Shown: positions 762 to 61,473 of the stretch, in pieces
Numbering within the stretch: position 1 is the stretch's first letter
How the letters are laid out: every line of letters starts with the position of its first letter
DNA from: Chelatococcus sp. YT9
GTDB lineage: Bacteria > Pseudomonadota > Alphaproteobacteria > Rhizobiales > Beijerinckiaceae
Length of the DNA: 64,000 bases
Assembly: GCF_018398315.1 (NCBI RefSeq)
Contig: NZ_JAHBRW010000002.1
Coordinates: forward strand, 46,637-110,636
Reading direction: 5' to 3'
The notes under the pieces: generated by a model
Database searches by the model: none
What the model was told of the DNA's origin: nothing
Seen by the model: the letters and a program-made list of their open reading frames with translations, nothing else
Made by a program: the position numbers and the translations under genes

Positions 762-2468
762 TCAACGGCGCGCGACGCTTTCGGCCGCCGCCTTCAGCCA
801 GAGTGCGACGGCTTCCGCGCCCGGATCGGGATAGCCCAGCGCACGCTCGCCGATGTAGCTGGACCGCCCGCGGCGCGGCATCATCTCGGCCGTGCGGGCC
901 GCCCCCCGGCTCGCCGCATCGGCGGCGGCGGCCAGTTGCGCGGCCACCCCGCCACCCTGGGCGATCGCCTCGGCGGCAGGCAGAAGCGCGTCAACCATGG
1001 TCCGGTCGCCCGCCTTTGCGCCACCGAGCCGCGAGACGGAGGCCACTGCCGCGGAAAATGCCGTCGCCAAGGTCGCAGGGGCGTCCCCGGTGGCCTCCTT
1101 CAGGCTGTTGCTGGCGCTCAGCGCCATCGCCGCATAGAGCGGTCCCGACGTACCGCCCACGGCGCGGCGGATGGTCAGCGAGAGCTCGCGCAGCACGGCA
1201 TAGGTCGCGTAGCCCGGCATCGCGTCGAGCCGCGCCAGGATGGCTTCCGCGCCCTGCGCCAGCGAGCGGCCGATATCGCCGTCGCCGACATGGCGGTCCA
1301 TTTCAGTGAGCCGGTCCTCGGCCGCGAGCAGGGCCTCGCAGCCGCCGCGGATGGCGGCGATCACCGCGGGCGGGGCAGGCGTCGCGCGGCCGTCATCGGG
1401 GTTCACCTCGGCCTGCCCGGCGGGCACCGTCGCCACCCTGGCAAGCGGTGGCCGCGTGGCGCGGACGTTGCCGAGCCATGCGGGCGCTTCCGTCGCCGCG
1501 TCCAGCGCCTCGCGCAGGGACGCTTCGAGCTTCAGCAGGCTGAGCGACACGCCGTCCATCTCGATGGCGGTCAGGAAAGTGCCGCAATAGGCACGCTCGA
1601 CGACGATGCCATGGCCCTGCAGATGATCGAGCGCATTCTTCGCGACGATGTTCATCTCCATCGTCGGCGTGCCGCCGAGATTGTTGACGAGCAGCGCCAC
1701 CGCATCGCCGGACTTGATGGCCCGATCCGCGATGATGGTGTCGAGCAGGAGAGCGGTCAGCGTCGCGGCGCTGGCAATAGTGCGCCGCGCAACGCCCGGC
1801 TCGCCGTGGATGCCGAGCCCGAGCTCGATTTCATCCGCTCCGAGCTCGAAATTGGCCTTGCCCGACGCCGGCACGGTGCAGGGGGACAGCGCGACGCCCA
1901 TGGAGGCAAGCCCGGCGACCGCCGCCCGCGCACGCGCCGTCACGTCGGCGAGGCCGAGGCCCGCCTCAGCGGCCGCGCCCGCCACCTTGTGCACCAGCAC
2001 GGTGCCGGCGATGCCGCGCCGGCCGGCTGTCGCCTCGGCGCTGCCAAGCGCCGCGTCATCATCGACCACCACGGTTTCGACCGGAATGCCGTGCGGCCGC
2101 GCCATTTCCGCCGCGAGGCCGAAATTGATGCGGTCGCCCGTGTAGTTCTTGACCACCATGAGGACACCGGCCGGCGTGCCCACGGCCATCAGCGCCGCGA
2201 AAACCGCGTCCGTGCTCGGCGAGGCGAAGACATCGCCCGACACGGCCGCCGTCAGCATGCCGCGACCGACATAACCGGCATGAGCGGGCTCGTGGCCGGC
2301 GCCGCCGCCGGAAATGACGGCGACCTTGCCGCTTGCCCGGAAAGCCTCAATATCGCCGCGGATCACCGTGGCATAGCCGTCGAGCAGCGCCAGATCCGGA
2401 TGCAGGCGAACAAATCCCTCAAGCGTTTCCGGTACAACCTTCAGAACGTCGTTGATCAGCTTCTTCAA
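762..2468 (-). CDS. dihydroxyacetone kinase family protein, DhaK-DhaL fusion
   Basis: 568-residue cytoplasmic kinase. Residues 1-330 form a DhaK-like domain with GGGAGHEP at 54-61 and the substrate-binding histidine in the motif GIHGEPG (His221), which in this family forms a covalent hemiaminal with the keto sugar. Residues 370-568 form the ATP-binding DhaL domain with the Mg-binding aspartates in VGDGDIG (394-400). Fused single-chain kinases of this kind use ATP, unlike the PTS-dependent split type. The start is a TTG preceded by GAGCGAGGA. It lies about 95 bp downstream of a ketose-3-epimerase-like gene and a sugar ABC importer, so the likely substrate is dihydroxyacetone or a short ketose such as erythrulose; the exact one is inferred only. 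Confidence 0.92.
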   Translation of the reverse strand: MKKLINDVLKVVPETLEGFVRLHPDLALLDGYATVIRGDIEAFRASGKVAVISGGGAGHEPAHAGYVGRGMLTAAVSGDVFASPSTDAVFAALMAVGTPAGVLMVVKNYTGDRINFGLAAEMARPHGIPVETVVVDDDAALGSAEATAGRRGIAGTVLVHKVAGAAAEAGLGLADVTARARAAVAGLASMGVALSPCTVPASGKANFELGADEIELGLGIHGEPGVARRTIASAATLTALLLDTIIADRAIKSGDAVALLVNNLGGTPTMEMNIVAKNALDHLQGHGIVVERAYCGTFLTAIEMDGVSLSLLKLEASLREALDAATEAPAWLGNVRATRPPLARVATVPAGQAEVNPDDGRATPAPPAVIAAIRGGCEALLAAEDRLTEMDRHVGDGDIGRSLAQGAEAILARLDAMPGYATYAVLRELSLTIRRAVGGTSGPLYAAMALSASNSLKEATGDAPATLATAFSAAVASVSRLGGAKAGDRTMVDALLPAAEAIAQGGGVAAQLAAAADAASRGAARTAEMMPRRGRSSYIGERALGYPDPGAEAVALWLKAAAESVARR

Positions 2469-2563
2469 GGCATCCTCGCTCCGTTGATGCCTCGAGTATG
2501 ATCACATCGCCTGACCGATCAACCGGCAGAGGTCGTGAATGTTGCAGCCGGGTCCCGTTGCTG

Positions 2564-3415
2564 TCAGGCGAAGCCGGCCTGCTTCAGCACCGCGATGCCC
2601 GAGCGAGCAACGGCTGCGCCATCGTCGAACAGGTTGCGCCATGCGCCGACCCCGGCGGCCACCTCCGGGCCGGAAATAGCGCTCGAGAAGGCCTCGACGC
2701 CGATCATGTCGGTGTAGTTGGAGGCCTTGAGAAAAGCGAGCATAGGGGCGAAATCGATGACGCCGCGATCAAGCGGCCCCCGGTTACTCTGGTCGATCTC
2801 GAAATAGGCAAGATAGGGTCGCGCCGCCTTCAGTGCCTCTAGTGGGTCGTCTTCCTCGATATTCATGTGGAACGTGTCGAGATGAAGATGAAGATTGGGC
2901 GCGCCGACACGCCTGACCATGTCGATACCTTGGGCGGCCGTGTTGAGAAGATTGGTCTCGTAGCGATTGACGATCTCCAAGGCGATCCGCATGCCGAAGC
3001 CGGCGGCCTCGTCGGCGAGAAGCGCGAGCGCCTCCGCCGCGGCCTTCACATTCTCCTCCGTCGCGGCGCGCTGCGCCTTGCCGAACACGCTGTAGAGAAT
3101 GCCGCCCATGTGCTTGGCGCCGAGATCGCGCGCCAGCCGCAGGGAGAGGCGATGACGCTCCAGCCCCGCTGCCCAGATAGCGCGGTCGGTGCTCGAAATG
3201 TCCGCATCCGGTCGCTGATTGGCCGTCGTCACCGGCCGCAGACCCTCCCGCTCCATGATGCGAACGATGGCGGCGGCCTCGATAGCCTCATGATCGCGCA
3301 GTGGAATGACGAGGCACTGGTAGCCGGCGGCCCGTGCCTGACGGGCCGCTTCCTCGCCATACTGCGTCGTCCATGTCGGCAGGAACGTATAGGAGTGGAT
3401 GGAAAGCGGATTCAT
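2564..3415 (-). CDS. sugar phosphate isomerase/epimerase, D-tagatose/D-psicose 3-epimerase-like TIM barrel
   Basis: 283 residues, the usual length for xylose-isomerase-like TIM-barrel epimerases. The signature ALEIVNRYETNLLNTA supplies the first metal-binding glutamate and is typical of ketose 3-epimerases. LHLDTFHMN gives the metal-binding aspartate and histidine, and GVEAFSS the last glutamate. Such enzymes use Mn or Co to epimerise free ketoses or their phosphates at C3. The gene follows the two ABC permeases and precedes the DhaK-DhaL kinase, which suggests import, epimerisation, then phosphorylation. Substrate unknown. Confidence 0.88.
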   Translation of the reverse strand: MNPLSIHSYTFLPTWTTQYGEEAARQARAAGYQCLVIPLRDHEAIEAAAIVRIMEREGLRPVTTANQRPDADISSTDRAIWAAGLERHRLSLRLARDLGAKHMGGILYSVFGKAQRAATEENVKAAAEALALLADEAAGFGMRIALEIVNRYETNLLNTAAQGIDMVRRVGAPNLHLHLDTFHMNIEEDDPLEALKAARPYLAYFEIDQSNRGPLDRGVIDFAPMLAFLKASNYTDMIGVEAFSSAISGPEVAAGVGAWRNLFDDGAAVARSGIAVLKQAGFA

Positions 3416-3486
3416 TGCGACAACCTTCTGAAGCCTTCCGGTGACACCACCGAAGCCTAAATGCGAGACAAGCTGGAGGAGTGGGC

Positions 3487-4317
3487 TCAGTCCTTGACGG
3501 CGCTGCCAGTGAAGCCCTGCACCAGGTATTTCTGAAGAAAGACGTAAAGCGTGGCAGGTATGACGCTGCCGATAACGGTAGCCGCCATGATTTCAGACCA
3601 TTGCACGCGGAATTGACCGATGAGCCGGGTAATCCCGAGTGTCATGGTTTGCTTGGCCTGATCTTCAATGAGGCACAGAGCCCACAACAGATCGCCCCAG
3701 GCGAGAAGAAAGGCGAAGGTTGCGGTGGCGACGAAGCCCGGAATGATGTTCGGCGCGATGATCCGCAGCAGGATCTGCAGCCGGTTGGCACCATCGATCA
3801 TCGCCGCGTTGTCGATCTCGGCGGGGACGGTGTCGATGTATCCCTTCAGCATCCAGACGCTGAACGGCAGTGTAATCGTCGTCTGCGCAAGAATGAGACC
3901 GAACAGGGTGTCATAGAGCCCGGCGAAGGTCAGCATACGGAAATAGGCGCCGACCAGGAGTACGCCTGGCAGCATCTGGCTGCCGAGGAACAGGGACATC
4001 CATGCCATCCGCCCCTTGAACTTGAAACGGGAGAAGCCGTAGGCCGCGAAAAGGCCAACCCCGGACGACAGCAAGGCCGTGCTGAGCGACACGATCAGGC
4101 TGTTACGGAAATAGGCGACAAACCCTTCCTGCAGCCAGATGTTGCGGTAGGCGTCCGTCGTCCACGCCTGCGGCACGAGCGTCGCGGGATAAGAGACGAC
4201 CTCGAGCGAGCTTTTGAAGGAGGACGTCACCATCCAGTAGAAGGGAAACAGATTGAAGATCGCCACGGCGAGAAGCGCGACCCAGACGAAGAGATTGGAT
4301 TGAGGGGATTCGCGCAT
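3487..4317 (-). CDS. sugar ABC transporter permease, MalG/UgpE type
   Basis: 276 residues from the ATG at 4317, which has AAGGAGG ten bases upstream; a GTG at 4326 overlapping the previous stop is the alternative start. Six hydrophobic segments are visible, with a large periplasmic loop after the first. The cytoplasmic EAA loop (AEIDNAAMIDGANRLQ followed by an I-A-P turn) is the contact for the ATPase. It partners the adjacent MalF-type permease and the binding protein. No ATPase gene is present in the operon. Confidence 0.93.
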   Translation of the reverse strand: MRESPQSNLFVWVALLAVAIFNLFPFYWMVTSSFKSSLEVVSYPATLVPQAWTTDAYRNIWLQEGFVAYFRNSLIVSLSTALLSSGVGLFAAYGFSRFKFKGRMAWMSLFLGSQMLPGVLLVGAYFRMLTFAGLYDTLFGLILAQTTITLPFSVWMLKGYIDTVPAEIDNAAMIDGANRLQILLRIIAPNIIPGFVATATFAFLLAWGDLLWALCLIEDQAKQTMTLGITRLIGQFRVQWSEIMAATVIGSVIPATLYVFLQKYLVQGFTGSAVKD

Positions 4318-4322
4318 TGGTC

Positions 4323-5180
4323 TCACGCCTCCTTCCGCAGGCTGGAGCGCACATAGGGCACCGCGAAGACCAGCATGACTGCTGCTAGAACGACCGCCAT
4401 GGACGCCGCATAGCTCGCGTTGAAGAATTCAAAGTAATTGCGGTAAATCAGCAGCGGCATCACTTCAGTTGCATTGCCCGGGCCACCGCTCGTCATGCCG
4501 AACACAAGACCGAAGAGGCGTGCCTGCCAGATGAGATCCAGCACCGCGGCCACGAGCAGCATGGGCTTGAGGTTCGGGATCGTGACATGCAGGAAGCACT
4601 GCCAGGTCGAGGCGCCATCAAGCTGCGCCGCCTCGTATTGCTGCTGACCGATCGACTGCAGCCCTGCGAGCAGGATCAGCATGATGAAAGGATAGCCGCG
4701 CCAGCCCTCCGCGAAGACCACGGCGGCGAAGGCAAGCTGCGGATCGCCGAGCCAATCGATCGGCGCCGCGATGAGCCCGACCGTCGTCAGGAGCGCGTTC
4801 ACGAATCCGGCCAATGGATCGAACATGAACCGCCAGAGAATGCCGCTGATCACGTCAGGGACCGTCCACGGCAGGATCGCGGTAACGCGGAACAGCCACT
4901 TGCCCTTGACATCGGCGTTGAGCAGAAGCGCCACGCACAGGCCGAGCGTGATGTGGATGCTCACGGTGGATGCGACGAACAGCGTGGTATTCCGGAAGGC
5001 CTGCCAGAACTGCGGATCCATCGCGAGCTGAACGTAATTCGCGATGCCCGGCACGTCCCCCGACCCCCAGAGCACATCGAAGCTCTGGAGAATTGCCGCA
5101 ACCGCAGGGAAACCAAGAATGCCTACAAGAAGAATAATGGCAGGCAACGCGAAGAATAAGCCGACACGTTGATCAGTCAT
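4323..5180 (-). CDS. sugar ABC transporter permease, MalF/UgpA type
   Basis: 285 residues from the ATG at 5180, preceded by AGGGTGG; a TTG at 5201 in frame is possible but weaker. Several membrane helices and an EAA loop (QYEAAQLDGASTWQ) identify the first permease of a carbohydrate-uptake (CUT1) importer. Its stop lies a few bases before the start of the MalG-type gene, a coupled arrangement. It forms the inner-membrane channel with that protein. Confidence 0.92.
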   Translation of the reverse strand: MTDQRVGLFFALPAIILLVGILGFPAVAAILQSFDVLWGSGDVPGIANYVQLAMDPQFWQAFRNTTLFVASTVSIHITLGLCVALLLNADVKGKWLFRVTAILPWTVPDVISGILWRFMFDPLAGFVNALLTTVGLIAAPIDWLGDPQLAFAAVVFAEGWRGYPFIMLILLAGLQSIGQQQYEAAQLDGASTWQCFLHVTIPNLKPMLLVAAVLDLIWQARLFGLVFGMTSGGPGNATEVMPLLIYRNYFEFFNASYAASMAVVLAAVMLVFAVPYVRSSLRKEA

Positions 5181-5291
5181 TGCCACCCTGTCTTTGTCCA
5201 ATATGCGGCTTTACGCGACATGGAGCGCGGAGGGCCTTGACCCGCCGCGCGATATCAACGGCCCGCTGTTTTCAACAGGCTCGCCACACCC

Positions 5292-6608
5292 CTAGCGCGC
5301 CAGGATCGCCTCGATCTGGTTATGAGCGTCGGCGAGAGCGGCTTCCGGCGTCTTCGTCTGGGCAACGGCTGCCTGGAGGTTCTGCCGGAAGGCGGTCAGG
5401 ATTTCCGGCCATTGCGGGATCAGCGGCAGGAAGGACGCGTGGTCGATCTCGGCCTTCACGACCTGGGCGAACTTGCTGTCCTGGATCGGCTTGAACTCGT
5501 CGTTCACAGACTGACGGCCCGACAGCATGTTGTTGTCAACAAACCACTTTTCCATGCGCTGGCGATCAGTCATGAACTGGATCAGCTTCCACGCCGCATC
5601 CGCGTGCTTCGTGTTCGGGTTCATGAAGAGGCCGTCCACATAGAGCGTGGACCGCACCTTGGGGTCGGTTCCCGCTTTCACCGGGATCGGCGCCATGGCC
5701 AGCGTGTTCCAGGCGTCGAAGGCCGGGTTGATCGCCTGGATGATCGGCAGGGCCCAGAGTGTCTCGACGATCGTGCCCACCTTGCTCTGCGCCATGAACT
5801 GGCGAGCGGCGTTGGCATCCACCTGAGAGACGCCGGGGGGCATGACCTTGTCCTTCTGGATGAGGTCGACCACGTACTGGAAAGCTTCCTTTGCCTCAGG
5901 CGTGTTGAGCGCGGAGTGCTTGTTGTCCGGCGTCAGGAAATCAGCCCCGAAACCGCGCAGGATGACAGACACGCGCAGATCAAATCCGGCCGGCTGAAGA
6001 ATAAGCGCCGTGCCCCACTGGTCGACCGGGCCGCCTTCCTTTGTCGCGCGCGTCAGTTTCTGGGCGGCCGTGCGGAATTCTTCCCAGGTCGCAGGCGCCT
6101 GGCTGACGCCTGCCGCGTCGAAAAGCTTCTTGTTGTAGGTCAGGACCATCGCGGCGGTATTCTTCGGCACGCCATAGACCTTGCCGTCGTTGGTGACAGC
6201 GTCGCGGAGCGAGGGGTAGAAGTCCGCCATGAATGCCTTGGCGCCGCCCTCCTTCTCCATGTAGGGCGTCAGGTCCTTGACCCAGCCTTCCCGAATGTAC
6301 TGGCTGATAGGGTTGGCATCGAGCTGGAAGATGTCCGGCCCGCGCCCCGCCCGGATGGCGGTCGTCAGCGTGACGTCGCGCTGCCCGAGCGACACCGGCT
6401 GCGGCACGATCTTGATGCCCGGATTGAGCCGCTCGAATTCCGCGAAGCCTTCCTTGAGCGAGGTCGCCCAAGGCTCTTCCGCCAGATGCCAGCTCTGATA
6501 GGTCAGCCGGATGTCTTCCGCCTTTGCAGGCGTGAGCGAACCAAGCGCCGCGAGCGAGGCCCCGACCAGGGCGGCCTTCGCCAACCCGCGTATCCCAAAT
6601 CCCTTCAC
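5292..6608 (-). CDS. sugar ABC transporter substrate-binding protein (family 1 solute-binding)
   Basis: 438 residues from a GTG at 6608 with a near-perfect AAGGAGG five bases upstream; an earlier in-frame start at 6686 lacks this support. Residues 1-30 form a signal peptide ending in TPAKAED, so the mature protein is periplasmic. The body reads as a CUT1-type binding protein (TYQSWHLAEEPW near the mature N-terminus, later GRGPDIFQLDAN). It is the first gene of the leftward operon with two permeases, epimerase and DhaK-DhaL kinase. The divergent promoter region shared with the GntR gene holds TTGT/ACAA palindromes. Confidence 0.93.
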   Translation of the reverse strand: MKGFGIRGLAKAALVGASLAALGSLTPAKAEDIRLTYQSWHLAEEPWATSLKEGFAEFERLNPGIKIVPQPVSLGQRDVTLTTAIRAGRGPDIFQLDANPISQYIREGWVKDLTPYMEKEGGAKAFMADFYPSLRDAVTNDGKVYGVPKNTAAMVLTYNKKLFDAAGVSQAPATWEEFRTAAQKLTRATKEGGPVDQWGTALILQPAGFDLRVSVILRGFGADFLTPDNKHSALNTPEAKEAFQYVVDLIQKDKVMPPGVSQVDANAARQFMAQSKVGTIVETLWALPIIQAINPAFDAWNTLAMAPIPVKAGTDPKVRSTLYVDGLFMNPNTKHADAAWKLIQFMTDRQRMEKWFVDNNMLSGRQSVNDEFKPIQDSKFAQVVKAEIDHASFLPLIPQWPEILTAFRQNLQAAVAQTKTPEAALADAHNQIEAILAR

Positions 6609-6676
6609 CGCATCCTCCTTGGCTTCCACGGCTCTGTGACCGTCCTCGCGCCGGACAGTGCAGACGGCGTTTTCAT

Positions 6677-6709
6677 TTGTCAACAAGTACAGAATTTGTT
6701 GGACAACAA
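6677..6709. promoter_or_regulatory. candidate GntR operator pair in divergent promoter
   Basis: Two palindromes sit side by side in the divergent intergenic region: TTGTCAACAA (6677-6686) and TTGTTGGACAACAA (6696-6709). The TTGT-n-ACAA layout is what GntR/FCD regulators commonly bind. The site lies between the binding-protein gene (leftward) and the GntR gene (rightward), so control of both by that regulator is the natural inference. Confidence 0.55.
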
Positions 6710-6851
6710 TTTTCGGAGGCTAACACGTCATCGACGCAAATTTCTGAGTTATCTGATATTTTCCACAACCTGCGGGCGCGTCCTTGTATGATGACTTGAC
6801 GCTGGAGTGAAGCCGTCGTCTGTTGCGCAAAGGCAAGCGAGAGAGAGTTCG

Positions 6852-7562
6852 ATGTCGTCTGGCGATCTGTCCCCGGCTGGTAGCCAACCGTCACGCCGTA
6901 CCGCGTCCAGGGTCTATGATCATATCTTCGACCGCATCGCGGCTGGCGACTACCTGAAGGGACAGAAGCTCCCGACGGAGACGGAAATCGCGGAGCAGTT
7001 CAAGGTGTCGCGCACCGTGGTGCGGGAAGCGCTTGCCCGGCTCAGGGACGATGGCCTCATCCAGTCGCGGCAGGGCGCGGGCAGCTTCATCCTGGCGAGC
7101 GCGGACCAGGCGATTCGCCGCTTCGCGCCGGTGATGAGCATCGGCGACATCCAGCGCTGCTACGAGTTCCGCATGTTCATCGAGGAGGCCGCCTGCGGGC
7201 TCGCCGCCCTGCGCCGCACCGAGAACGAGCTGCAGGAGTTGCAAAAGCTTCTGCGCGCCACGGAGGACATCAACGATGTCAGCCTCGGCGTGGAAGCCGA
7301 CCTCGATTTTCACCTTGCCATCGCCTCGGCCTCGCACAACCGCTTTTTCGTCGACACGCTCGTGTCCATGCGCAGCCATATGACCGTCGGCATGGAGCTG
7401 ACGCGCAAGCTCTCTCTCACCCGCCCGCAGGATGCGCTGCAGCTGATGTATGCGGAGCATCAGCTCGTCTACGATGCGATCGCGGCCGGGCAGGTCGACG
7501 TCGCCTCGGCGGCCATGCGCAATCACCTGGAGGCCGCCCGCAAGCGCGTCTTCGAGGATTAG
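6852..7562 (+). CDS. GntR-family regulator, FadR/FCD subfamily
   Basis: 236 residues from the ATG at 6852 (GAGAGAGAG just upstream; an in-frame ATG at 6807 is the alternative). The N-terminal winged helix shows LPTETEIAEQFKVSRTVVREAL, the classic GntR recognition region, here about residues 35-57. The C-terminal half is an all-helical FCD ligand-binding domain with the metal/ligand residues in ADLDFHLAIASASHN. It is divergent from the sugar-importer/kinase operon and probably represses it until the sugar or a phosphate derivative is present. Confidence 0.92.
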   Translation: MSSGDLSPAGSQPSRRTASRVYDHIFDRIAAGDYLKGQKLPTETEIAEQFKVSRTVVREALARLRDDGLIQSRQGAGSFILASADQAIRRFAPVMSIGDIQRCYEFRMFIEEAACGLAALRRTENELQELQKLLRATEDINDVSLGVEADLDFHLAIASASHNRFFVDTLVSMRSHMTVGMELTRKLSLTRPQDALQLMYAEHQLVYDAIAAGQVDVASAAMRNHLEAARKRVFED

Positions 7563-7619
7563 AGCATAATCCGACCGGAGGGAAACGAGGTCGATATGAG
7601 TGCTTCAAATAAAACAGCT

Positions 7620-7660
7620 TAGAGCGCCGATCTGATTCAATCAGATCGAATCGCGCTCTA
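7620..7660. repeat. palindromic intergenic repeat
   Basis: TAGAGCGC at 7620-7627 pairs with GCGCTCTA at 7653-7660. Inside, GATCTGATT pairs with AATCAGATC, giving a long imperfect hairpin with a small bulge on one side. It follows the GntR stop by about 60 bp. The TAGAGC/GCTCTA ends resemble dispersed extragenic palindromes that I associate with Hyphomicrobiales genomes; copy number here is unverified. It may also act as a transcription terminator for the GntR gene. Confidence 0.55.
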
Positions 7661-7740
7661 GCGGGGCGCCCCGCCCTTTCGCCGCAGCGCAACATGGCCT
7701 ACATGCACGGGCTCAAGCATCCGCCAGGTCCCCGTAAGCC

Positions 7741-9363
<1,623 letters not shown>

Positions 9364-9682
9364 TGGCAGCCAAGCTTTGATTAGCCCACACTATAGCAAT
9401 GAGTTATTGCCGGATGATACCCCGCTCAGCGACGGCGAAAGCACAGTGAGACATTTTCCCGATCTGGTTGGCCATTGTCAATATGTAACTGTCGTATCGT
9501 CAATCGTCACGGCAATATTTGAACCAATCCTTATCTAGAATCGAAAATCGTCGATAAACCGGTCCGCAAAACTATGCTCGGATCTAAAGCGCCGCGGATG
9601 TCTATAAAATGTAAAATTTGCTGAAAAAAAGCTCGTCTGCTACCTTCCGTTAAGGGGCTTGATCTACTGGGGGCAGGAGCGA
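9364..9682. other. AT-richer intergenic region before the GHKL-nuclease gene
   Basis: About 320 bp without a convincing gene. Composition shifts from the GC-rich host style to A/T-rich sequence near 9480 (runs such as TATAAAATGTAAAATTTG at 9603-9620), marking the left boundary of the foreign-looking insert. The A/T-rich stretch just before 9620 could hold the promoter of the downstream gene. I see no attachment site, tRNA or inverted repeat at the boundary. Confidence 0.5.
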
Positions 9683-10240
9683 ATGAATAAGGAAGCTCAT
9701 TTTTCCGTCCATACGAGGTTGACTAGAATCCTTGGAGAAACATATCGCTCTAGTGAAGTCGCTATTAAGGAACTAGTTGATAATGCTTGGGATGCAGACG
9801 CCCAACATGTGTGGATCAATCTGCCCGATCCGCTATCAAACGAAGCTATTGTTGTAAAGGATGACGGCACCGGAATGACATCCCAAGAGATACGCAGTGA
9901 GTATCTCAATATAGCGAGTGATAAACGCACTCGGACTGGCGAGAGAACGCCAGTATACCGACGAAAAGTGAAGGGAAGAAAAGGAATTGGAAAATTCGCT
10001 GGCTTGACCATTGCTAATAAGATGGAAATATCTACAGCAGCACGCGGCTATATTTGCACCATTATTGTGGACAAGCAGGAGCTGATTGACAATCAAAACG
10101 ATCTTGAAGCAGTTCCCCTTCCCTTCACTGAAGCCCCGCAGAATGAATCCGCGACAGGAACCACCATTACACTTTCGTCGCTCGACGATCGCTTAAATTT
10201 TCCGAATCCTGATCGTCTTAGAGAGGTTTTGATATCTTAG
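9683..10240 (+). pseudogene. GHKL-type ATPase, N-terminal fragment of a split GHKL-nuclease gene
   Basis: 185 residues from the ATG at 9683 (CAGGAG upstream). The Bergerat fold is clear: N-box ELVDNAWDADA near residue 30, G1 box DDGTGM near 61, and G2 box GRKGIGKFAGL near 102. These bind ATP in Hsp90, MutL and MORC-like proteins. The frame ends at a TAG created inside a perfect 19-bp tandem duplication (10216-10253). Removing one copy fuses it in frame to the next open frame, giving a protein of about 590 residues. Codon use and G+C are lower than in all neighbours, so it is probably acquired. Whether it is dead, phase-variable or functional as two chains cannot be told from sequence. Confidence 0.8.
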
Positions 10241-10253
10241 AGAGGTTTTGATA
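10216..10253 (+). repeat. perfect 19-bp tandem duplication causing a frameshift
   Basis: The unit TCTTAGAGAGGTTTTGATA occurs twice back to back (10216-10234 and 10235-10253) with no mismatch. Because 19 is not a multiple of three, the extra copy shifts the frame by +1. It also creates the TAG stop at 10238-10240 that ends the upstream ATPase fragment. With one copy the frame reads continuously from the ATPase into the nuclease part. Confidence 0.95.
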
Positions 10254-11471
10254 CAAGAATACGGGCGAGAGGACAGATTCATCGTTTCTGTTAACGGAAC
10301 TGCGCTGTCGGTCGATGATGTGCCGGGCCAGACCTCCCAGGCAGAGGAGATTTTACCTAACGCCGGCAACATAAAGCTACACTTCACTATAGCCGACAGC
10401 AAACGTCTTCCAAAACTTCCAGGAATTATTTTAAAAGTTGATGGGAAGGCGGTCGGACGACCTTTACTATTTGGTCTGGATCAAGATGAGGAAATTCCCA
10501 CCAAACTCGCCCGTCGTGTCTATGGTGAAGTTAATCTCAGCGGACTGTCGGATTTTGTTACCGCCGATTGGGGAGGCTTTATCGAGAACAGCAAGGCGTT
10601 TCAGGAAGTGCAGACTTATGTGCAGCTTGAAATAAAGAAAGGGCTTAAGGATACGCATGCTCGCGAAATGAACCTCCAGCAGGCGCGATTAAAGAACGAA
10701 CTACGACAACGCCTGATGCGGCTTCCTGAACACCGCCGGCAGTATGCAGAAGAAGCCTTAAACCGCATTCTCAAGCGCTTTTACGGAGAAAGCGATGAAC
10801 GTGTTTCAACCATTGCAAGCGTGGCGCTGGACGCGATGGAACACGATGCGTACTGGGCCGTTTTTGAGCGCATCAGCGTATCCAGCCGTAGTGACGTTTG
10901 GTCATTTGCAGAGTCATTGGAGCAATTTGGCCTAGTCGAGCTATCTAGCATTGCCCAACAAGCGGTACGCCGCGTAAAATTCTTAGATTTTTTTGATCAA
11001 CTCGCCAACAATCCAGACACGCTTGAGAAAGATGTGCACAAAGCACTGGAAACAAACCTTTGGATTCTCGGCCGCAATTACTCTGCAATGTCGTCTAATG
11101 CGACGCTTCGCACCATAGTCGAGACTTATTGCGGGACTTCGTTAGAAAGCGGCAGAGCCTCAAAGCGGCCTGACCTGTTGCTTTCGCAGAGCTACGGGGA
11201 CGCCTACCTGCTAATCGAGTTTAAGCGCCCCAATCACAGCATATCGCGGGAAGATATCGCGCAAGCCGAGAAGTATCGGGATGATCTTTGCGTACGACTA
11301 TCATCAACTACAAAAATGGAGATAATGATGATAGGAAAAGGTAGAGTTAACACCTTAGATACGAAGAATCTTCTGGAAACGATAAAAATTATCTCCTATG
11401 CAAGCATGATATCTAATGCCCGGTCCGAATTAGAATGGCTTATTGCTTCCTTATCTAATCTTCGAGCCTAA
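10248..11471 (+). pseudogene. C-terminal part of the GHKL-nuclease gene with PD-(D/E)XK-like domain
   Basis: Open frame of 407 residues from a TTG that lies inside the second repeat copy. Residues 1-230 continue the GHKL protein (transducer-like and helical region). The last 160 residues resemble a PD-(D/E)XK nuclease of the DUF4263/Shedu kind: a helix EKDVHKALETNLWIL near 262, then RPDLLL (307-312), IEFKRP (323-328) and QAEKY, matching D...E-x-K...Q. GHKL ATPase plus nuclease in one chain recurs in antiphage and restriction-like systems. The TTG has AGAGAGG only two bases upstream, too close for good initiation, so independent translation is doubtful. AT-rich like its partner. Confidence 0.75.
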
Positions 11472-11546
11472 AGGTCAATTTGATACATCATAATCGCGCA
11501 CGAAAGCCCTTCACACCCCGCGCGGTCGTATATCATCATGTTTCCC

Positions 11547-12248
11547 TCACCCCCCATTCGCCTCCCGCACATGCACCAGGAGCCCCTGGCCGCCGCGTTC
11601 GATGTCCTCGCGGCTCGCGGCGCGGGCTTTGTCGGGGTCGCGTTCGCGCAGCGCGGTGATGAGGCGCAGATGCGGGTGGGGTTCCCAGTCCGGCAGGCCC
11701 TCGTCGTAGAGATGGGAGAGGATGGGCCCGCAGCGCACCCATAGGCCCTCGACGATGTCGTAGAGGATGGGCAGGCGCGCCATGCGGCAGAAGGTGAGGT
11801 GGAACTCCGTGTTGAGATCCACCGCCTGCACGAAGCTCCGGCTCGCGTGGCATTCGGAAATCTGCGCGTGGATGGCGACGAGGGTCTCGATCTCGGCCTC
11901 GGTGGCGATGAGGGCCGCGGCGGCGGCAGCGCGCCCTTCGAGATCCGTGCGGATGGCGCGGATCTCCTGCAGCTGCTCCAGCGTCAGGGTCGGCACCACC
12001 ACCGAATTGCGGGCATCGAGCGCCAGCGCCTTCTCGCCGACGAGCCGCAGCAGGGCCTCGCGCATCGGGGTCGCGCTGATGCCGAACCTCACCGACATGG
12101 GCCGGAGCCGCAGGCGCTCGCCGGGCCGCAGCCGCCCGCGCATGAGGGCCGCCCTCAAGTCCGTGTAGGCGCGCTCGCTCAGGTTCTCCTTGACGATCGG
12201 CTGCACCCAATCGCCCGTCGCCGGGGTTTTCTCTTTATTGTGTGGCAT
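11547..12248 (-). CDS. GntR-family regulator, FCD subfamily
   Basis: 233 residues from the ATG at 12248; a GTG at 12260 is the in-frame alternative. The winged helix shows LRPGERLRLRPMSVRFGIS followed by TPMREALLRL, the GntR recognition helix. The C-terminal FCD domain carries DLNTEFHLTFCRMA with the conserved Asp and His. It is divergent from the alcohol-dehydrogenase gene at 12400 and is the probable local regulator of the long rightward cluster. A perfect TGTTATAACA palindrome sits in the shared promoter. Confidence 0.9.
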   Translation of the reverse strand: MPHNKEKTPATGDWVQPIVKENLSERAYTDLRAALMRGRLRPGERLRLRPMSVRFGISATPMREALLRLVGEKALALDARNSVVVPTLTLEQLQEIRAIRTDLEGRAAAAAALIATEAEIETLVAIHAQISECHASRSFVQAVDLNTEFHLTFCRMARLPILYDIVEGLWVRCGPILSHLYDEGLPDWEPHPHLRLITALRERDPDKARAASREDIERGGQGLLVHVREANGG

Positions 12249-12283
12249 ACGACTTGACACGGGGCGGTTTCCTCGACCAAAAC

Positions 12284-17666: not shown

Positions 17667-18557
17667 GTGATGGATACCGTTCTCCAGTTGCTCGCCAATG
17701 GCTTGATGCTTGGCGGCCTCTTCGCGATCGTTGCGGTTGGACTGACGCTGATCTTCGGCATCGTCAAAGTCGTGAACTTCGCCCATGGCGAATTCCTGAT
17801 GGTCGGGATGTATCTCACCTTCCTGGTCACGCGTCTGCTTGGGCTCCATCCCTTCGTGGCGGTCATCGTTGTTGTGCCAGCGCTCTTCCTCCTCGGAGCC
17901 TTGACGCAGCGCCTCATTATTCAACCGCTGATGAGCGCGCGCGACGATCATATCCAGATCTTCGCGACAGTCGGCTTGTCGACAGCGCTGATAAACCTCG
18001 CCTTGCTGGTTTTCGGCGCCGATATCGCCAACACGCCGGCAAGCGGGCTCCGAACGCCCATTGAAATCGGGCCGGTTCGCGTCCTCAGCGGGCAGATCGT
18101 GATCTTTGCCGCTTCTATCCTGCTTGTCATCGGCTTGCAGGCGTTTCTGCAGAGCACGGCGACAGGCCGTGCCATTCGTGCCGTCGCCCAGAACCGCGCC
18201 GCCGCCCAGCTGATGGGCATCAACGTCGACCGGATCTATATCCTGACCTTCGGCATCGGCGCGGCCTGCGTAGGCGTCGCCTCAGTGCTGATCGCGCCGC
18301 TCTATCCGACCTCGCCGACCATCGGCACCTACTTCGTGCTGACTGCCTTCGTTGTCGTCGTTCTCGGCGGGCTGGGGTCCATTCCCGGGGCCTTCGTCGG
18401 TTCGCTGGTCATCGGATTGATCGACAGTTTCGCGGGCTTCTATGTTGGCTCGGACATGCGCGAAGTCGCGGTCTTCGGCATGTTCCTCATCATTCTCATC
18501 CTGAAGCCGGCAGGCCTGTTCGGAAAGCGTCTGAACCTGTCGCACGTATCGCCATGA
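17667..18557 (+). CDS. livH: branched-chain ABC transporter permease LivH-type
   Basis: 296 residues, about eight membrane helices. The N-terminal segment LLANGLMLGGLFAIVAVGL and the motif GIVKVVNFAHGEFLMVG are typical of LivH. GTG at 17667 and ATG at 17670 are adjacent possible starts. It forms the membrane channel with the LivM half of the next gene. The symbol denotes family, not proven substrate. Confidence 0.9.
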   Translation: MMDTVLQLLANGLMLGGLFAIVAVGLTLIFGIVKVVNFAHGEFLMVGMYLTFLVTRLLGLHPFVAVIVVVPALFLLGALTQRLIIQPLMSARDDHIQIFATVGLSTALINLALLVFGADIANTPASGLRTPIEIGPVRVLSGQIVIFAASILLVIGLQAFLQSTATGRAIRAVAQNRAAAQLMGINVDRIYILTFGIGAACVGVASVLIAPLYPTSPTIGTYFVLTAFVVVVLGGLGSIPGAFVGSLVIGLIDSFAGFYVGSDMREVAVFGMFLIILILKPAGLFGKRLNLSHVSP

Positions 18558-18578
18558 CAGCGCCATGACAGGATTGCC

Positions 18579-24686: not shown

Positions 24687-25859
24687 TTGGATAAAGATCC
24701 TATCGTCATTGCCGCCATCGCACGCACCCCGATGGGCGGGTTCCAGGGCGAACTCAAGGGGCACTCCGCTCCGGAACTCGGCGCCGTTGCCATCAAGGCG
24801 GCCGTGCAACGTGCGGCGCTCACCGGTGACGACATCGATGAGGTCTTGATGGGCAACGTGCTCAGCGCCGGCGTCGGCCAAGCCCCAGCGCGCCAGGCCG
24901 CTCTCGGCGCGGGCTTGCCACAAGCTGTTCCCTGCACGACCGTCAGCAAGGTCTGCGGGTCGGGCATGAAGGCCGTGATGCTCGGGCACGATCTGATCGC
25001 TGCCGGCAGTGCAAATGTCGTGGTGGCAGGCGGGATGGAGAGCATGACAAATGCGCCCTATCTGCTGGACCGTGCACGCCAGGGCCTGCGCCTCGGCCAC
25101 GGGCGCGCGCTCGACCACATGTTCCTCGACGGTCTCGAAGACGCGTACGACAAGGGCCGCCTGATGGGCAGCTTCGCCGAGGACACCGCGCAGCACTACC
25201 AGTTCACACGCGAGATGCAGGATCGCTATGCGCTGACCTCGCTGGAACGTGCCAACCGTGCCATCGCGGACGGGGAGTTTTCATCGGAGATCGTGCCTGT
25301 ACCAGCAGGTGTCGATGCCATCCGCATCGACGAACAGCCCGGGAAAGCGAAGCCCGATAAAATCCCAACGCTGAAGCCCGCGTTCCGCGCTGACGGCACC
25401 GTCACCGCCGCGAACGCCTCCTCCATCTCAGACGGCGCCGCTGCCCTCGTCTTGATGCGTCGGTCGGAAGCGGAGCGTCGGGGGATCACGCCTGTCGCGA
25501 TCATCCGCGGACAAGCCGGTCATGCGCGCGCGCCGGCCTGGTTCACAACAGCCCCCGTCGGCGCGCTCGAAGCCTTGTTCGCGAAGACGGGTTGGACCAA
25601 GGCCGACGTCGATCTCTTCGAGATCAACGAAGCATTCGCGGTGGTGGTACTCGCCGCGATGCGCGAGCTCGACCTGCCACATGACAAGATCAATGTGAAT
25701 GGCGGGGCCTGCGCACTCGGACATCCCATCGGCGCGTCCGGCGCGCGAATCCTCGTTACTCTCGCGGCTGCGCTTGAGCGACGCGGTCTCCGGAAAGGCG
25801 TCGCCACGCTCTGCATCGGAGGCGGAGAGGCAACAGCCGTCGCCATCGAGCGGCTGTAA
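24687..25859 (+). CDS. acetyl-CoA C-acyltransferase (thiolase)
   Basis: 390 residues from a TTG at 24687 with AGGGAGA upstream. Nucleophile Cys lies in KVCGSGM near residue 90. The histidine loop is GGACALGHPIGASG, and the second cysteine is in CIGGGEA. All thiolase catalytic residues are present. It either condenses two acetyl-CoA or cleaves a 3-ketoacyl-CoA. Last gene of the rightward run, about 100 bp after the GMC gene and convergent with the TRAP operon. Confidence 0.93.
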   Translation: MDKDPIVIAAIARTPMGGFQGELKGHSAPELGAVAIKAAVQRAALTGDDIDEVLMGNVLSAGVGQAPARQAALGAGLPQAVPCTTVSKVCGSGMKAVMLGHDLIAAGSANVVVAGGMESMTNAPYLLDRARQGLRLGHGRALDHMFLDGLEDAYDKGRLMGSFAEDTAQHYQFTREMQDRYALTSLERANRAIADGEFSSEIVPVPAGVDAIRIDEQPGKAKPDKIPTLKPAFRADGTVTAANASSISDGAAALVLMRRSEAERRGITPVAIIRGQAGHARAPAWFTTAPVGALEALFAKTGWTKADVDLFEINEAFAVVVLAAMRELDLPHDKINVNGGACALGHPIGASGARILVTLAAALERRGLRKGVATLCIGGGEATAVAIERL

Positions 25860-25945
25860 CTCCCGGATCGGCATCTATCACTTTTGCCAAACACATCCAT
25901 GCTGTGGAAGCGCCGTGCAGTCACGGCGCCCGCATTCTTGCCCAC

Positions 25946-60143: not shown

Positions 60144-60495
60144 CCAACCGGCATTCCGACAGGACCAAGTAACCCTCCGTGTCATGTCATCGGCGCGCAG
60201 ATTCAACTAGCTTGATGACACGACAGAGCTGTCGCGTTGATCCCTCCCTAGGGGAGGGTGGCCTCGCGTCAGCGAGGTCGGGTGGGGATACGCTGGAGAA
60301 CGAACCCTCAAGCCGGCAGCCGTTCCTGCCCTTCGGTCGGATCAAAGTCAGCTGGCCCCACCCGGCGCCTGCGGCGCCACCCTCCCCGGAGGGGAGGGAT
60401 CATTGCGGCGCGAGTGACGTAGAGACACAAGGCGGACGGGCACGCCGGAACCGAAAGGCCCGCGTGCCCGGAACACTTGCATCAGTTCTTCTGCA
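60144..60495. other. 351-bp intergenic gap between convergent genes
   Basis: Lies between the comC-like stop and the Bug-receptor stop. Nearly half is a 165-bp palindromic element (60238-60402), which may also end transcription from both sides. Around 60480-60505, CTTGCATCAGTTCTTC and GCATCAGTTCTTC form a short direct repeat at the very end of the receptor gene. No gene recognised. Confidence 0.6.
60238..60402. repeat. 165-bp palindromic repeat element, ends TGATCCCTCCC/GGGAGGGATCA
   Basis: Outer inverted repeats of 11 bp are perfect (60238-60248 and 60392-60402). Next inward, AGGGGAGGGTGG pairs with CCACCCTCCCC and CGGGTGGGG with CCCCACCCGG. Two local hairpins sit inside (CCTCGCG-TCAG-CGAGG and GGCGCC-TGC-GGCGCC). 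Non-coding. It resembles the nested palindromes dispersed between genes in Hyphomicrobiales; copy number unchecked. Confidence 0.72.
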
Positions 60496-61473
60496 TCAGT
60501 TCTTCGGCCCGTTCTCTCCAATGACAGCGCGCCAGGTCGCGATCTCCTTGGCGAATTGGGCTTGATGCGCGGCTGGCGTTCGCTCTCCCGTGGGGAAAAG
60601 CTGCGTGCCGACTTCTGCGAAGCGTGTTTGCACGTTCTTGTCGTCCAACGCCTTCTGCAGCGCCGCATTGAGCTTGGCCACCACGTCGGGCGAGGTCCCC
60701 GCTGGGGCGTAGATTCCGTGCCAGATGGTAAAGGCGAAGTCCTTGAGGCCCGTCTCCTGCAATGTCGGCAAGTCCTTGAGAACCGGCAGCCTCTCCTGCG
60801 AGGTCACCGCGAACCCTTTGACAGTGTTACCCTCGATCTGCGGAACGGCTGTTGTCGACTGGTCACACAGCACGTCCACTTGCCCGCTCATCAGATCGTT
60901 CATCGCGGGGCCGGTGCCGCGATAGGCAACCTGCGTGAACGTGACGCCCAATGCCTTCTGCAAAAGCAGGGTGCAGAGATGTGAATTCGATCCGACGCCG
61001 GCATGGGCGAGCGTGGCCTTCATCCCGTCCGCCTTCAGTTTGGCTGTGAGGCCCGCGGCATCGGTCGCCAGATAATCCTTTTTCGACATCAGGACCATCG
61101 GCCCGGAATTGACAAGTCCGATGGGGGCGAAGGCCGTTGCCGTATCGTAGGCGAGCTTCGGATAGAGCGATGCTCCGGCCGCGAGAGCCACATGGTGGAT
61201 GAGCAGCGTGTAACCATCCGGATCCGCCTTGGCGACGCGCGCGGCACCGGACGTCCCGCCGGCCCCCGCGACATTCTCGATCACGACCTGTTGTCCAAGC
61301 GTTTCCGACATGGACTGGCCAATAAGGCGCGCGATCGCATCGCTCGGGCCTCCCGCCGCGAAAGGAACAACCAGTGTTATGGCTCGTGAGGGATAGGATT
61401 GCGCTTGGACCGCGCCACCCGCCGTCGCTACCGTCATAAGACCGGCCACAATCGCCTGCATCAATATTCGCAT
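60496..61473 (-). CDS. Bug-type tripartite tricarboxylate transporter receptor
   Basis: 325 residues from the ATG at 61473 (GGGAGGA upstream); longer in-frame starts add no signal sequence. Signal peptide ends near GGAVQAQS. The mature protein starts YPSRAITLVVPFAAGGPSDAIAR, the Bug/TctC signature, and has GTSGAARVAKADPDGYTLL. These receptors feed TctAB-type permeases. In Chromohalobacter the sulfolactate importer SlcHFG is of this type, so this may be the SlcH counterpart. No TctA or TctB gene lies within the window. Confidence 0.88.
   Translation of the reverse strand: MRILMQAIVAGLMTVATAGGAVQAQSYPSRAITLVVPFAAGGPSDAIARLIGQSMSETLGQQVVIENVAGAGGTSGAARVAKADPDGYTLLIHHVALAAGASLYPKLAYDTATAFAPIGLVNSGPMVLMSKKDYLATDAAGLTAKLKADGMKATLAHAGVGSNSHLCTLLLQKALGVTFTQVAYRGTGPAMNDLMSGQVDVLCDQSTTAVPQIEGNTVKGFAVTSQERLPVLKDLPTLQETGLKDFAFTIWHGIYAPAGTSPDVVAKLNAALQKALDDKNVQTRFAEVGTQLFPTGERTPAAHQAQFAKEIATWRAVIGENGPKN

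What the first reader, a model, noticed from the sequence alone, without database searches (positions are those of the whole stretch)
9683..11471. GHKL ATPase plus PD-(D/E)XK nuclease in one chain: candidate single-gene defence system
With the frame repaired, one AT-rich gene of about 590 codons carries a Bergerat-fold ATPase (ELVDNAWDADA, DDGTGM, GRKGIGKFAGL), a long helical middle and a C-terminal nuclease pattern RPDLLL...IEFKRP...QAEKY reminiscent of DUF4263/Shedu. The ATPase boxes are seen directly. The nuclease call rests on a short motif. ATP-gated nuclease architectures are recurrent in antiphage systems, and this one stands alone, with no partner gene.
Basis: partly seen in the sequence, partly recalled or inferred. 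Interest (0 to 1): 0.75.

Follow-up and report, generated by a model that had tools for sequence, protein, structure and literature searches.

The report
Broken ATP-gated anti-phage nuclease gene
This is a recently broken copy of a known kind of one-gene phage-defence nuclease in a Chelatococcus-like bacterium, and it sits in a small chromosomal slot where related genomes carry other, unrelated single genes, one of them also defence-like.

Summary
Window 9683-11471 holds one gene in two frames, broken by a perfect 19-bp tandem duplication. Chelatococcus asaccharovorans has an open 589-aa copy, about 98% identical. The parts are a GHKL ATPase, an S5-like domain, helices and a PD-(D/E)XK nuclease; the nuclease model's best PDB match is the Bacillus cereus Shedu nuclease domain. 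This architecture is known: paraMORC3 (2008) and VcSduA, shown to be anti-phage and classed as Shedu type I-D (2025). So it is a new, disabled member of a known kind, under purifying selection until recently (dN/dS about 0.06). Two points add interest. (1) In 4 of 4 genus genomes held, the slot between the same two convergent genes carries one AT-rich gene: GHKL-Shedu twice, a Schlafen-AlbA_2 gene once (no PADLOC hit), an OLD-like ATPase once; against G002 and G003 it is the only two-sided replacement in the stretches compared. (2) Rhizobial copies mostly travel as near single-gene cassettes, and 9 of 23 loci examined (7 independent) have defence-type neighbours.

The parts
9683..10240 (+). 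First half: 185 codons, GHKL (Bergerat) ATPase domain, ends at TAG 10238-10240
   Evidence: Pfam HATPase_c_3 7.9e-28; NF050001 1.5e-32, below its cut-off
10216..10253 (+). Perfect 19-bp tandem duplication that shifts the frame and brings in the stop; the relative L005 has the 19-mer once
10242..11471 (+). Second half in another frame: open frame of 409 codons (first possible start TTG 10248): S5-like domain about 10272-10571, helical region about 10593-11009, nuclease about 11010-11468
   Evidence: domain borders carried over from the models of the intact relative; the S5 label is inferred
11025..11264 (+). Predicted nuclease active-site residues: E (11025-11027), D of RPD (11172-11174), E-x-K (11217-11225), Q (11262-11264)
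   Evidence: invariant in 20 of 20 intact relatives as E442, D491, E506, K508, Q521
9364..11546 (.). The slot: interval between two convergent conserved genes; 2183 bp, 47% GC; carries a different lone gene in G002 and in G003
7741..9363 (+). Left anchor: ABC-F type ATPase gene
   Evidence: homology to G002/G003 ends 2-3 bp after its stop; the name is read by eye from the two ABC cassettes in the translation, no HMM run on it
11547..12260 (-). Right anchor: GntR/FCD regulator gene
   Evidence: Pfam GntR and FCD; homology to G002/G003 resumes at 11544

Best explanation
The gene is a broken copy of a one-gene anti-phage nuclease of the GHKL-Shedu kind (paraMORC3; Shedu type I-D, VcSduA-like), carried as the cargo of a small chromosomal slot. 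Inferred mechanism of the intact protein: two chains dimerise, and ATP binding closes the GHKL/S5 part as a clamp on DNA, as in MutL, MORC and topoisomerase VI. An unknown feature of phage DNA or of a phage-made DNA structure then licenses the C-terminal PD-(D/E)XK domain to cut that DNA, without a methylase partner. Shown here: the domain order, the conserved active-site residues, past purifying selection, patchy spread between lineages, the break, and the slot. Inferred: dimer, clamp, trigger and target. In the window's strain the duplication separates the ATPase from the rest, so the copy is most likely inactive and the break recent.
For: Domain and fold. Published functional relative VcSduA with both active sites needed (passages). 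Whole copies in 21 of 29 distinct family copies examined. Purifying selection before the break: dN/dS 0.057 (first half) and 0.066 (second half) against the intact relative. No m5C methylase (PF00145) in the genome. Patchy distribution: 4 of 297 genomes of the order, the window's own included. Travel as a near single-gene cassette in Rhizobiaceae. Defence-type neighbours in 9 of 23 loci examined, 7 independent. Slot shared with an OLD-like gene and a Schlafen-AlbA_2 gene.
Against: Sequence membership of Shedu is weak: SduA_C stays below its gathering score for the window half (25.1 against 27) and for L005 (22.9), and 3 of 20 relatives do not reach E 1e-3; PADLOC SduA models match 15 of 20 and 3 of 20. 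Profile hits to solved Shedu chains are marginal (E 0.017 and 0.092; a coiled-coil chimera scores as well, 0.016). TM-scores to Shedu are only about 0.5 with rmsd about 7 A, and model confidence is moderate (pLDDT 78.4; in the full-length model the nuclease part runs 50-76 by block, mostly under 65). The full-length model matches Hsp90/MORC chains with TM about 0.26 and rmsd 12-17 A, so only parts superpose. PADLOC's stronger hits are to type II restriction enzymes, in L005 through the ATPase part (20 of 20 relatives). No activity was measured for any of the copies seen here. Many neighbours are housekeeping genes, and no background rate was taken. The AlbA_2 cargo of G002 has no PADLOC or NCBIfam hit, so its defence role is inferred from the domain alone.
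Confidence: 0.8

Rival explanations
1. A type II restriction enzyme of the BbrUII/HgiDII kind that cuts a fixed site and relies on a methylase.
For: NCBIfam NF050001 matches both halves collinearly and L005 with 161.3 bits; PADLOC REase_II matches 20 of 20 relatives.
Against: The curated cut-off is 550 bits. The known methylases of that kind are m5C enzymes (PMC5867850, passages), and the genome has no PF00145 match, while the same search rings in 10 of 14 control genomes. Rhizobial copies travel with little flanking DNA.
Confidence: 0.07
2. The tandem duplication is a reversible slipped-strand switch: most cells are off and a few are on.
For: Perfect directly adjacent 19-bp copies; coding sequence on both sides still looks constrained.
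Against: None of the 20 intact relatives aligned has an insertion there (A1). The other breaks lie elsewhere, and at the three inspected no perfect tandem repeat has a unit over 6 bp. Other short tandem duplications exist in the window, so the lesion type is not special.
Confidence: 0.1
3. Sequencing or assembly artefact: the strain's gene is really whole.
For: Single allele, no reads available; selection signal looks like that of a working gene. Two other broken copies (L019, L025) have several frame changes and may be assembly errors.
Against: A perfect 19-bp repeat unit is not a homopolymer error; the strain's whole assembly shows the same two-frame match, but that is the same assembly.
Confidence: 0.1
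4. The two frames are made as two chains that reassemble: ATPase chain and S5-nuclease chain.
For: The break lies at the ATPase/S5 border of the model; TTG 10248 begins 7 bases past the stop codon, with GAGG just upstream (sequence).
Against: Only 2 nt lie between GAGG and the TTG; none of the 21 whole relatives is made as two genes.
Confidence: 0.04
5. A MutL-like repair protein with a housekeeping role.
For: The GHKL part scores against MutL models (35.4 bits, cut-off 180); Iyer 2008 allowed a repair role for some versions outside R-M contexts.
Against: Patchy (4 of 297 genomes), horizontally moved, and absent from two of four genus genomes, where other genes stand in its place.
Confidence: 0.04

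Closest known systems
VcSduA of Vibrio cholerae (Shedu type I-D; PMC12137116, abstract and passages seen)
   Same: N-terminal GHKL ATPase, clamp-like middle, C-terminal PD-(D/E)XK DUF4263-type nuclease in one chain; single gene
paraMORC3 GHKL proteins (Iyer, Abhiman and Aravind 2008, PMC2292703, parts 1-3 of 4 read)
   Same: GHKL + S5 + C-terminal restriction-endonuclease-fold domain with E-D-ExK; standalone subset mainly in proteobacteria and Bacteroidetes
   Different: Grouping by their own alignment not tested; they left the standalone set's role open
Shedu of Bacillus cereus (PDB 8ti8/8ti9)
   Same: Nuclease domain is the best fold match
   Different: Not seen to carry a GHKL ATPase; sequence similarity marginal
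BbrUII/HgiDII restriction enzymes (NCBIfam NF050001)
   Same: Collinear similarity over ATPase and C-terminal parts
   Different: Far below the family cut-off; no m5C methylase in the genome
Defence hotspots of P2/P4-like phages (Rousset et al. 2022, PMC9122126, summary and passages seen)
   Same: Small (about 1-5 kb) loci between two conserved genes with swapped defence cargo
   Different: Here the anchors are chromosomal genes with no phage gene seen beside them, and each cargo is one gene

Membership tests
Shedu type I-D (VcSduA-like) | Shedu-type PD-(D/E)XK nuclease fold at the C-terminus | tested here: met
   Foldseek top hits 8ti9_C E 3.1e-5 and 8ti9_B 6.9e-5, the only two under 1e-3; TM about 0.5, rmsd about 7 A; model of the relative, pLDDT 78.4
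Shedu type I-D (VcSduA-like) | Pfam SduA_C above its gathering score | tested here: not met
   25.1 (window half) and 22.9 bits (L005) against 27; 17 of 20 relatives at E <= 1e-3, their bit scores not shown
Shedu type I-D (VcSduA-like) | N-terminal GHKL ATPase with its motifs | tested here: met
   HATPase_c_3 in 20 of 20 relatives; invariant boxes
Shedu type I-D (VcSduA-like) | Both domains in one chain | tested here: not met
   In the window split over two frames; met in the intact relatives
Shedu type I-D (VcSduA-like) | Anti-phage activity | not testable with these tools
   Published for VcSduA
paraMORC3 | GHKL domain plus RE-fold domain with E-D-ExK | tested here: met
   Searches (HATPase_c_3; fold), E442, D491, E506-x-K508 invariant
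paraMORC3 | S5 domain after the GHKL domain | tested here: inconclusive
   Alpha+beta region follows in the model and Hsp90/MORC chains align over about 370-450 columns, but TM is only about 0.26
paraMORC3 | Grouping with Iyer's paraMORC3 sequences | not tested
   Their alignment and supplement were not available
BbrUII/HgiDII restriction enzyme | NF050001 score over 550 | tested here: not met
   161.3 bits for L005
BbrUII/HgiDII restriction enzyme | m5C methylase partner | tested here: not met
   0 PF00145 matches in the genome; control rings in 10 of 14
MutL | TIGR00585 over cut-off | tested here: not met
   35.4 bits against 180 for the window's first half

The most novel reading that the evidence does not exclude
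The interval between the ABC-F gene and the GntR gene is a chromosomal exchange slot for one-gene defence cassettes. It has no integrase, and cargo is replaced by homologous recombination through the two anchor genes, so members of the genus swap one unrelated defence gene for another at the same address. A cargo can be switched off in place, as in the window, before it is swapped.
Probability: 0.45. Interest if true: 0.55.

Novelty: new member of a known kind. Interest (0 to 1): 0.4.

Why it matters
It extends the GHKL-Shedu kind to a clade found in a range of alphaproteobacteria, with an intact natural copy (C. asaccharovorans) ready for testing, and shows such a gene gained, exchanged and broken within one genus. 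The slot offers a simple address: reading the same interval in more Chelatococcus genomes may list further one-gene systems, including the Schlafen-AlbA_2 kind, for which PADLOC had no model hit here.

Tried and rejected
Phage origin: one weak phage hit (Pasteurella phage Pmp14, 24.6% over 45% of the query, E 9e-4) and none in viral contigs by the peptide patterns used, so no phage-borne version was found. Phase-variable cassette: the other breaks lie elsewhere, and at the three inspected the longest tandem unit is 6 bp. Element ends: no shared 8-mers between the outer 80 nt of the two slot ends in any of the four genomes, so no sign of a transposon or integron-like unit. Conserved partner: the PDC-S28-like helicase is divergent in L019, L049/L050 and L051 only, of the loci searched; a 41% similar helicase follows the remote homologue L004, so it is an optional companion at best. 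OLD-like cargo of G003: no match in 249 genomes of the order at E 1e-50, which without a positive control says little; the AlbA_2 cargo of G002 has 3 of 249. Promoters and terminators by consensus: 7 promoter-like sites (2.7 expected), none between 9364 and 9683 on the gene's strand; no terminator-like site (2.5 expected); uninformative. One search's orthologue test returned nothing usable, probably a BLAST setting, and was repeated. In print: 'paraMORC' 7 papers; GHKL + anti-phage + nuclease 5; two of Shedu/DUF4263/GHKL 5; Chelatococcus + anti-phage 0. PMC8011034 was seen in the listing only. Gu et al. 2025 and Loeff et al. 2025 are known only from the reference list of PMC12137116; the former is not held.

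Full report
What is there. At 9683-11471 there is one gene in two frames. The first frame (9683-10240) ends at a TAG inside the second copy of a perfect 19-bp tandem duplication, 10216-10234 and 10235-10253; the rest of the gene is open from 10242 to 11471. In C. asaccharovorans the same gene is one open frame of 589 codons from its ATG, and the 19-mer occurs once (checked again). The copies differ little: 175 of 177 residues identical before the repeat and 397 of 404 after it. dN/dS is 0.057 and 0.066, so both halves were under purifying selection for nearly all of their separate history and the break is recent.

What the protein is. The first half is a GHKL ATPase (HATPase_c_3 E 7.9e-28). 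On the second half Pfam gives only sub-threshold nuclease hits: SduA_C 2.2e-5 (25.1 bits, cut-off 27), HSDR_N_2 1.1e-4, VRR_NUC 1.2e-3. I aligned 20 intact relatives (A1; 44-73% identical to the first row, L005). The GHKL boxes are invariant, and so are E442, R489-P-D491, E506-x-K508 and Q521. Over the 20 relatives HATPase_c_3 is found in 20 and SduA_C in 17 at E <= 1e-3; PADLOC REase_II in 20, SduA in 15. By sequence profile the ATPase part reaches TRAP1/Hsp75 (E 3.5e-6) and MORC3 (7e-4). A model of the full L005 protein (16 rows, pLDDT 73.6, pTM 0.54) has TRAP1/Hsp90 and MORC chains as best matches, over about 370-450 alignment columns but with TM about 0.26 and rmsd 12-17 A, so only parts superpose; the S5 label for the second domain is inferred from this and from the alpha+beta pattern. 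A second model of the last 192 residues (19 rows, pLDDT 78.4, pTM 0.73) has only two PDB matches under E 1e-3, both the B. cereus Shedu nuclease domain (8ti9, 3.1e-5 and 6.9e-5; TM about 0.5); below come archaeal EndoMS-like nucleases, Cap4 and restriction enzymes. The sequence profile alone reaches Shedu chains only marginally (E 0.017 and 0.092; a coiled-coil chimera has 0.016).

What is known. Iyer, Abhiman and Aravind (2008; parts 1-3 of 4 read) described paraMORC3: GHKL + S5 + a C-terminal restriction-endonuclease-fold domain with E-D-ExK, with standalone copies mainly in proteobacteria and Bacteroidetes whose role they left open. The V. cholerae study PMC12137116 (abstract and passages) shows that VcSduA, a GHKL + DUF4263 protein, protects against T1-like phages and vibriophage X29, that changing E27 or K557 abolishes protection, and places it in Shedu type I-D, citing Gu et al. 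2025, which I could not read. The window gene matches that architecture. I did not have the VcSduA sequence, so a direct alignment is missing. The BbrUII/HgiDII restriction enzymes are cousins: NF050001 matches collinearly but L005 scores 161.3 bits against 550, and the genome has no PF00145 m5C methylase (control rings in 10 of 14 genomes).

How it spreads. In the order, 4 of 297 genomes have the protein at E <= 1e-40, the window's own included; 12 plasmid records match at E 1e-10, six of them at 41-72% identity and six at about 22%. A tree of the 20 intact copies separates an alphaproteobacterial group from one holding Chlorobiota, Bacteroidota and a betaproteobacterial plasmid (100/100; inner forks mostly unresolved, and the program warns of long branches in the second group). 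Among Rhizobiaceae copies at about 85-97% DNA identity, homology over the gene ends 87-464 bp upstream and at most 171 bp downstream, with these exceptions: L049/L050 (whole locus identical), L019/L049/L050/L051 (about 3.0-3.1 kb shared upstream) and L014/L019 (884 bp shared downstream); L011 and L048 are more distant (70-72% to the rest, 82% to each other) and share little beyond the gene; a few pairs share further blocks farther out. So it mostly moves as a near single-gene cassette.

How often it is broken. Of 29 distinct copies (window; 21 loci, a pattern-based and so not exhaustive sample; L047, L048, L049 with its duplicate L050, L051 and L052 from plasmids; G275 and G309; G348 counted with L016, which it appears to be), 21 are whole, 6 are split by frame changes (window, L011, L019, L025, L048, G275), one is cut by a contig end (L023) and one lacks the ATPase half (L024). 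L019 (a Brucella species, described only) and L025 have several frame changes, and in L019 the neighbouring helicase is also split, so these two may be assembly errors. Of the three other breaks inspected (L011, L048, G275) none has a perfect tandem repeat with a unit over 6 bp in the 160 bp around it, so the window's lesion is not a shared switch.

Neighbours. I looked at selected neighbours, by annotation or HMM, in 23 loci (not L011, L024, L025, G275; not the Chelatococcus pair; L019 through the helicase only). Nine have a defence-type neighbour: L012 Hachiman HamB (1864 bits), L015 type IIG R-M, L017 retron-type RT and a DpdF/GajB-like helicase, L022 type I specificity subunit, L060 SIR2 and HerA, L049, L051 and L019 one shared PDC-S28-type helicase unit (HEPN also at L051), and L048 toxin-antitoxin genes; counting the shared unit once, seven independent cases. 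L014 has a phage integrase next door. L006, L008, L013, L016, L018, L021 and L023 gave ordinary genes (PriA and transaldolase, UvrB, an Na/H antiporter, transketolase, GntR, radical SAM and HD, hydantoinase). In L007, L009, L010, L020, L047 and L052 the ORFs scanned matched no Pfam family and say nothing. The proteins for one search were mostly picked because they looked defence-like, and no background rate was taken, so I claim presence, not enrichment.

The slot. The gene lies between two convergent genes, an ABC-F gene ending at 9363 (named by eye) and a GntR/FCD gene ending at 11547. All four genomes of the genus held have this pair. G001 has the same cargo, intact. G002 has an unrelated 522-aa gene with a Schlafen AlbA_2 domain (8.1e-13), without a PADLOC or NCBIfam match. 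G003 has an unrelated 579-aa AAA/OLD-like gene on the other strand (best of 114 PADLOC families: Old, 3.8e-21). Slots are 1835-2221 bp at 46-48% GC, none is empty, and no shared end repeats were found. Against G002 over 64 kb, and against G003 over 37 kb, this is the only place where both sides hold over 300 bp of different DNA; one-sided differences are 5 for G002 and 1 for G003. Against G001, over 47 kb, the cargo is shared and the one two-sided difference is 6634 bp against 859 bp at 1020-7653. Synonymous divergence from the window is 0.12-0.20 in the two anchor genes, 0.22-0.48 in the three genes further out (the left GntR gene had no match in G001), and 0.09-0.12 in the cargo shared with G001, although the two anchor genes of G003 are closer to the window than those of G001. 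Lower divergence near the slot, and cargo shared by the more distant pair, fit exchange by homologous recombination through the anchors; codon bias in the ABC-F gene could explain part of it, and few genes were compared. Comparable small hotspots between two conserved genes are known in P2/P4-like phages (PMC9122126, passages).

Mechanism. Most likely (inferred from the family): the intact protein dimerises through its ATPase part, closes on DNA with ATP, and a feature of invading DNA lets the nuclease domain cut. VcSduA's protection at all tested phage doses, read by its authors as direct restriction that spares the host, is the nearest evidence. In the window's strain the two halves are separated, so protection is unlikely; I give small weights to an artefact, to a reversible repeat switch and to a two-chain form.

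Verdict. The fresh parts are the alphaproteobacterial clade with a natural intact copy to test, and the slot that holds three unrelated one-gene cargos in four related genomes.

Noticed in passing
window 9364-11546; L040, L041: The same intergenic slot holds a Schlafen-AlbA_2 gene in G002 and an OLD-like ATPase gene in G003.
   Followed up: yes
window 18550-18571 and 60478-60505: Two more short perfect tandem duplications (11 and 14 bp); the first is an extra copy relative to G002 and G003, the second sits at a gene end where the alignment to G002 shows a 13-bp gap.
   Followed up: partly
L049 4472-7000, L051 4494-7022, L019; L004: An 842-aa PDC-S28-like helicase lies divergently upstream of some copies, and a 41% similar helicase lies directly downstream of a remote GHKL-nuclease homologue in L004: a possible optional partner.
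   Followed up: partly
L060 (G309) 1934-11501: The GHKL-Shedu copy lies in an island with SIR2 and HerA genes, a weakly Lit-like gene (1.7e-7) and, by eye, a serine-recombinase-like gene.
   Followed up: partly
window 25858-25941 and 1020-7653: G001 has 11 kb of extra DNA at the first place and only 859 bp in place of 6.6 kb at the second.
   Followed up: no
L024 7986-8888: The Endozoicomonas copy keeps the helical and nuclease part but no ATPase half was found; either truncated or a nuclease-only form.
   Followed up: no
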